Below, piece by piece: positions 59,383 through 63,255 of a DNA stretch of 64,000 nt. The position numbers and the translations under genes are program-made. The notes beneath the pieces were generated by a model. It did no database searches, had not been told where the DNA came from, and saw only the letters and a program-made list of their open reading frames with translations. Numbering within the stretch: the stretch's first letter is position 1; every line of letters begins with the position of its first letter. This DNA comes from Oscillospiraceae bacterium (GTDB taxonomy: Bacteria; Bacillota; Clostridia; Oscillospirales; Oscillospiraceae): positions 62,001-126,000 of the forward strand of contig JAFQNL010000020.1 of assembly GCA_017395935.1 (NCBI GenBank). Reading direction: 5' to 3'.

Positions 59383-63255
<3,873 letters not shown>

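What the first reader, a model, noticed from the sequence alone, without database searches (positions are those of the whole stretch)
62430..62450. Single in-frame TAG interrupts the essential gene rpoC at the tip of the clamp coiled coil
Seen: the rpoC frame is perfect from 63255 to 59383 except for TAG at codon 272, flanked by RLKRLM and [15 protein letters not shown]. Known: rpoC is essential, and this segment is the turn between the two antiparallel clamp helices that hold sigma factor. Inference: possible explanations are (a) a sequencing or assembly error, (b) amber read-through by a suppressor tRNA or other recoding, (c) a naturally split beta' whose halves re-associate through the two helices. 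The location at a hairpin tip makes (c) structurally less absurd than elsewhere, but there is no ribosome-binding site before GTG 62418.
Basis: partly seen in the sequence, partly recalled or inferred. Interest (0 to 1): 0.85.

Follow-up and report, generated by a model that had tools for sequence, protein, structure and literature searches.

The report
Lone stop in rpoC, probably artefact
One base turns a codon of an essential RNA polymerase gene into a stop in this draft bacterial genome; related species have an ordinary codon there and no means of reading through the stop was found, so a wrong base in the assembly is the likeliest cause.

Summary
In detail: the only rpoC found (minus strand, 63255-59383) is open except for one TAG at codon 272 (62442-62440). 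Of 28 genus sequences covering the site (27 genomes), none has a stop there: 19 Gln, 3 Asp, 3 Glu, one each Ala, Lys, Arg. The TAG is one transition from the commonest relative codon. Both parts of the gene evolve like intact sister genes. Decoding machinery was sought and not found: 46 of 46 tRNA genes have other anticodons than CUA; no pylS; RF1 is whole and equals its 29 sisters at all 142 columns invariant among them; tRNA-Gln(CUG) is identical in 27 of 29 sister loci; TAG still ends 13 other predicted genes in the sample. No other well-aligned internal stop was seen in 71,656 bases compared with sisters. A split beta-prime has no good support. Most likely the base is wrong or unrepresentative in a draft consensus; one of the other 27 genus assemblies also has a broken rpoC, by a frame-changing misjoin. 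Against this: the assembly otherwise looks clean, and the tRNA set is incomplete, so a suppressor on unassembled DNA is not excluded. Reads, or other genomes of the species, would decide.

The parts
62440..62442 (-). in-frame TAG, codon 272 of rpoC
62443..63255 (-). 5' part of rpoC (271 codons), matches the rpoC model over positions 1-264
59383..62439 (-). 3' part of rpoC, open in the same frame to its own TAA; matches the rpoC model
62383..62393 (-). AGGAGG string followed two bases later by an in-frame GTG, 19 codons behind the TAG; ordinary coding sequence, the string is found in 23 of 27 sister sites

Best explanation
The TAG is most likely not decoded by any special mechanism: it is a single wrong or unrepresentative base in this draft consensus (base-call, assembly or strain-mixture error). 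Living cells of the species would then carry an ordinary rpoC with a sense codon at position 272. Shown: the site, its absence from the genus relatives examined, normal constraint on both parts, no suppression machinery in the assembly. Inferred: that the base itself is wrong; neither reads nor other genomes of the same species could be seen.
For: 28 genus sequences from 27 genomes cover the site and none has a stop there: 19 Gln, 3 Asp, 3 Glu, 1 Ala, 1 Lys, 1 Arg; all 29 listed matches of the domain in those genomes are without stops. The best-matching sister rpoC is 86.1% identical, so the change sits on this tip. Constraint on codons 273-900 is as in intact sisters: dN/dS 0.105-0.166 against five sisters, 0.038-0.262 between sisters. 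No CUA anticodon among 46 of 46 tRNA places. No pylS match. RF1 whole, with GGQ and PxT motifs, no private change at 142 invariant columns. tRNA-Gln(CUG) identical in 27 of 29 sister loci. TAG ends 13 other predicted genes in the sample. rpoC of another genus assembly (G014) is also broken, its frame changing where codons 348-364 are covered twice, which looks like a misjoin.
Against: The assembly looks otherwise clean: no other well-aligned internal stop and no flagged frameshift in 71,656 bases aligned to sister proteins, no stop in 51 ABC-domain matches, 97.05% complete, 0.16% contamination. TAG is rarer as terminator here (14 of 489, the rpoC one included) than in pooled sisters (48 of 858), though within the spread of single genomes (0 of 47 to 23 of 316). 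No rpoC of the 27 other genus genomes shows an in-frame stop in the part compared, so a lesion of this kind is not common.
Confidence: 0.82

Rival explanations
1. Real amber codon read as glutamine (or another residue) by a suppressor tRNA encoded on DNA missing from the assembly, or by strong natural leakiness.
For: Relatives mostly have Gln here and six different residues occur. TAG is rare as terminator, 14 of 489, so suppression would cost little. Ile(GAT), Ala(TGC), Pro(TGG) and Arg(CCT) are missing from the 46 tRNA genes, so the set may be incomplete.
Against: No CUA anticodon among 46 (two sub-threshold matches were not typed). RF1 canonical, tRNA-Gln(CUG) as in sisters, no other in-frame TAG inside coding sequence seen in the sample. 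That ordinary leakiness is too weak to supply an essential subunit is recalled.
Confidence: 0.1
2. The gene is truly broken in the sampled cell or strain (dead or dying variant), with no compensation.
For: The TAG itself.
Against: Only rpoC copy found, no relaxed constraint, no second lesion in its 1,291 codons. That rpoC is essential is recalled.
Confidence: 0.05
3. Beta-prime is made as two chains that re-associate through the two clamp helices, split at the tip.
For: The stop falls at the coiled-coil tip (tip recalled). My loose filter flagged a GTG 19 codons behind the TAG with AGGAGG in front.
Against: AGGAGG ends 2 bases before that GTG, too near by recalled spacing rules, and is in 23 of 27 sister sites as coding sequence. 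No genus relative has a stop at the site. RNA around the stop folds no better than shuffles, z -0.47.
Confidence: 0.02
4. The organism uses a genetic code in which UAG is a sense codon.
For: TAG is the rarest terminator.
Against: One internal TAG in coding sequence against 13 other predicted genes that end in TAG; 10 of these were looked at one by one and the next in-frame stop follows 2-83 codons later. RF1 intact; no tRNA for UAG.
Confidence: 0.01

Closest known systems
Single-base consensus error or strain-mixture base in a draft genome
   Same: isolated, private to one assembly, one transition, in a gene that must be intact
   Different: reads were not available, so the error is inferred, not seen
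Amber (UAG) suppression by mutant tRNA-Gln, as in laboratory E. coli supE/glnV strains (recalled)
   Same: UAG where relatives mostly have glutamine
   Different: no CUA tRNA among the 46 found and no other in-frame UAG seen
UAG-to-glutamine codes of ciliates and other eukaryotes (named in passages of PMC8629427) and of some phages (recalled)
   Same: UAG at a glutamine position
   Different: a single site, UAG still ends genes, RF1 intact; the introduction of PMC8629427 says that the changes then known in bacteria all reassign UGA
Cyanobacterial split beta-prime (gamma plus beta-prime chains)
   Same: beta-prime in two pieces would be needed here too
   Different: the gamma chains are 624-626 residues long and contain this region whole

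Membership tests
Amber suppression by a tRNA | tRNA gene with CUA anticodon | tested here: not met
   0 of 46 tRNA places in the assembly; unassembled DNA not covered
UAG reassigned genetic code | many in-frame UAG codons at conserved positions of one residue | tested here: not met
   one such site in 71,656 sister-aligned bases; about 29% of the genome was sampled
UAG reassigned genetic code | RF1 lost or altered | tested here: not met
   RF1 359 aa, prfA model above cut-off, 0 private changes at 142 columns
Pyrrolysine system | pylS present | tested here: not met
   TIGR02367: 0 matches in own genome
Split beta-prime | start signal for a second chain | tested here: inconclusive
   AGGAGG 2 bases before a GTG, 19 codons behind the stop; same string in 23 of 27 sister sites
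Split beta-prime | split conserved in relatives | tested here: not met
   28 of 28 genus sequences have a sense codon at the site
Consensus error | reads disagree with the consensus base | not testable with these tools
   no reads held
Consensus error | variant private to one assembly | tested here: inconclusive
   private among genus species, but one genome per species is held, so strains of the same species were not compared

The most novel reading that the evidence does not exclude
A bacterium carries a fixed amber codon in an essential RNA polymerase gene at a glutamine position and lives by a natural suppressor tRNA (or unusually strong UAG leakiness) encoded on DNA absent from this assembly: an early step toward UAG capture in a lineage that hardly uses UAG.
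Probability: 0.07. Interest if true: 0.8.

Novelty: not a real feature. Interest (0 to 1): 0.15.

Why it matters
If the TAG were real and decoded, it would be a natural case of an essential bacterial gene that depends on UAG suppression, and would bear on how stop codons are captured. As it stands it is mainly a caution: a lone stop in a core gene of a draft genome, even a clean one, calls for reads before any recoding claim.

Tried and rejected
Suppressor search: 46 of 46 tRNA places typed, none CUA; two sub-threshold matches (19.8 and 15.5 bits) not typed. PylS: none in own genome; that control is loose, ringing in 13 of 14 named genomes but over the cut-off in 1. RF1: no private change; the 29 sister sequences were picked by script with the RF1 motifs as handle, so motif identity among them is partly by choice. 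tRNA-Gln(CUG): 27 of 29 loci identical over the first 71 bases, two differ. PMC13092985 on short anticodon stems (passages seen) gave nothing that applies. UAG avoidance as a sign of recoding: TAG is rare in the whole genus sample. RNA structure: ordinary. The same site in IMG/VR: 0 exact matches (near records may be left out by the tool). A first coding model had trained on the antisense strand and was dropped; one search replaced it. The family search (254 of 300 genomes with a match) showed no stop in the rows listed, but the list was cut by E-value before the place of our own row, so it gives no fair base rate. In one search, 15 of 66 two-sided stops (8 TAA, 7 TGA) had no start with a signal close behind and were not followed up, so other TAA or TGA lesions in the sample are not excluded. 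Private changes: at columns where the five sisters agree, our rpoC has 5 in codons 1-271 and 2 in 273-900; the sisters, counted the same way, have 1-10 and 0-31. The rpoC of G021 and G022 was not recovered whole by script and is missing from the dN/dS comparison. One search compares 71,656 of 602,735 sampled bases, because only orthologs inside the fetched stretches could be compared; six further stops it flagged lie near alignment ends. Paper searches were (38 and 42 returned 0 papers; others showed 12 of 76, 12 of 17 and 8 of 1,699; one showed 7 of 7); nothing on a natural in-frame stop in rpoC was seen in these listings.

Full report
What is there. On the minus strand, 63255-59383 reads as a complete beta-prime subunit of RNA polymerase except for TAG at 62442-62440, codon 272. 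Both pieces match the rpoC family model. The assembly (2,066,242 bases, 46 contigs, 97.05% complete, 0.16% contamination) has one match of the N-terminal domain, and the tool counts one TAG in it.

Position. The sequence after the TAG aligns without gaps to solved beta-prime chains; residue 273 falls at 274 of chain 7l7b_D, and the TAG corresponds to residue 284 in the full-length E. coli chains (derived from the ranges). That this is the tip of the clamp coiled coil, which holds sigma, is recalled.

Relatives. Of 32 genomes of the genus (own included) 28 had a match; the 29 matches in the 27 others have no stop in the domain. Of the 29 loci fetched from them 28 cover the site (L028 ends before it): 19 Gln, 3 Asp, 3 Glu, 1 Ala, 1 Lys, 1 Arg. 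The named loci from the wider collection have mostly Asp or Glu there (3 of 80, L031, L033, L043, gave no match to the motif). So the earlier residue here was most likely Gln, and the TAG arose by one transition on this tip.

Is the gene otherwise alive? Yes. dN/dS against five sisters lies in or near the range of sister-sister pairs: codons 1-271, 0.061-0.110 against 0.032-0.117; codons 273-900, 0.105-0.166 against 0.038-0.262; codons 901-1290, 0.159-0.314 against 0.209-0.392. The best-matching sister is 86.1% identical over the part compared, so this cannot tell a recent real stop from an error, but it speaks against an old pseudogene.

Could it be decoded? 46 tRNA places above the cut-off, all 46 typed, none with CUA. 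Ile(GAT), Ala(TGC), Pro(TGG) and Arg(CCT) are missing, so the assembled set may be incomplete; that the first two usually sit in rRNA operons, which short-read assemblies lose, is recalled. No pylS. RF1 (359 aa) and RF2 (386 aa) pass their curated models; RF1 has no private change at 142 columns invariant in 29 sisters. tRNA-Gln(CUG) is identical over its first 71 bases in 27 of 29 sister loci.

Is TAG still a stop? In the own sample 14 of 489 predicted genes end in TAG, the rpoC piece included. Ten of the other thirteen were looked at: the next in-frame stop follows 2-83 codons later. For one of them (L144:6535) a sister protein aligns up to two residues past the TAG, so the TAG is at or close to the usual end; L147:4183 is followed by a start with GAGGAGG in front. 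The others were not compared with relatives. In seven sisters TAG ends 48 of 858 genes, from 0 of 47 (G002) to 23 of 316 (G031). TAG is thus rare across the genus and somewhat rarer here than in the pool, which leans weakly to the suppression reading.

Are there other lesions? Against 104 sister proteins with a match, rpoC is the only internal stop in a well-aligned stretch and no frameshift was flagged, in 71,656 bases. 51 ABC-domain matches genome-wide have no stop. In 602,735 bases, 66 stops have coding-like sequence on both sides; 51 have a start with a Shine-Dalgarno-like string close behind, the rpoC TAG among them by a loose filter, and 15 TAA or TGA do not and were not followed up. A clean assembly makes an error in any one gene less expected; but the site was picked out by a scan for oddities, so one such error is no surprise. 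A control for rpoC lesions in drafts: among the 27 other genus genomes, G014 has rpoC broken by a change of frame where codons 348-364 are covered twice (L024), and G026 shows a similar overlap of codons 164-189 with an insertion in frame (L026); none has an internal stop in the part held.

Split chains. Behind the TAG an AGGAGG ends two bases before an in-frame GTG. The spacing is poor by recalled rules, and 23 of 27 sister sites carry the same string as coding sequence. Local RNA folding is ordinary (z -0.47).

Judgement. A lone private transition in an otherwise intact gene, with the tested parts of a decoding system absent or normal, is best explained by a wrong or unrepresentative base (0.82). 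Suppression from unassembled DNA or leakiness 0.10, true break 0.05, split 0.02, new code 0.01. Literature: PMC8629427 (passages seen) says in its introduction that the changes known in bacteria all reassign UGA, and, for yeasts, explains false stop-codon calls by in-frame stops in pseudogenes that arise by single transitions.

Noticed in passing
window 43935-46967 (+): Glycoside hydrolase family 3 protein with its domains in reversed order: C-terminal domain first (111-381), then Fn3-like (452-529), then the N-terminal domain (718-913).
   Followed up: no
window 59302-63999 (+): Open frame of 1,566 codons, still open at the window's end, antisense to rpoC and the gene before it; no Pfam match in its first 1,033 residues. 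Probably a by-product of codon use, as other long antisense frames occur in the window.
   Followed up: partly
window 26305-30981 (-): 1,559-residue protein with GH85 C-terminal-like, fibronectin type III and SASA (sialic acid-specific acetylesterase) matches, likely a glycan-degrading enzyme.
   Followed up: no
L163-L192 and L205-L244 (sister stretches): TAG is rare as a terminator in seven sister genomes of the genus, 48 of 858 predicted genes.
   Followed up: partly
L024 and L026 (rpoC of G014 and G026): rpoC of G014 changes frame where codons 348-364 are covered twice; rpoC of G026 has a similar overlap with an in-frame insertion. They look like misjoins.
   Followed up: partly
G026:C57:5972-6148 and G030:C45:14141-14300: Two near-identical tRNA-Gln(CUG)-like matches side by side in each.
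   Followed up: no
window 58869-59093 (+): Two tRNA-Ser genes (TGA, GCT) side by side beyond the 3' end of rpoC.
   Followed up: no
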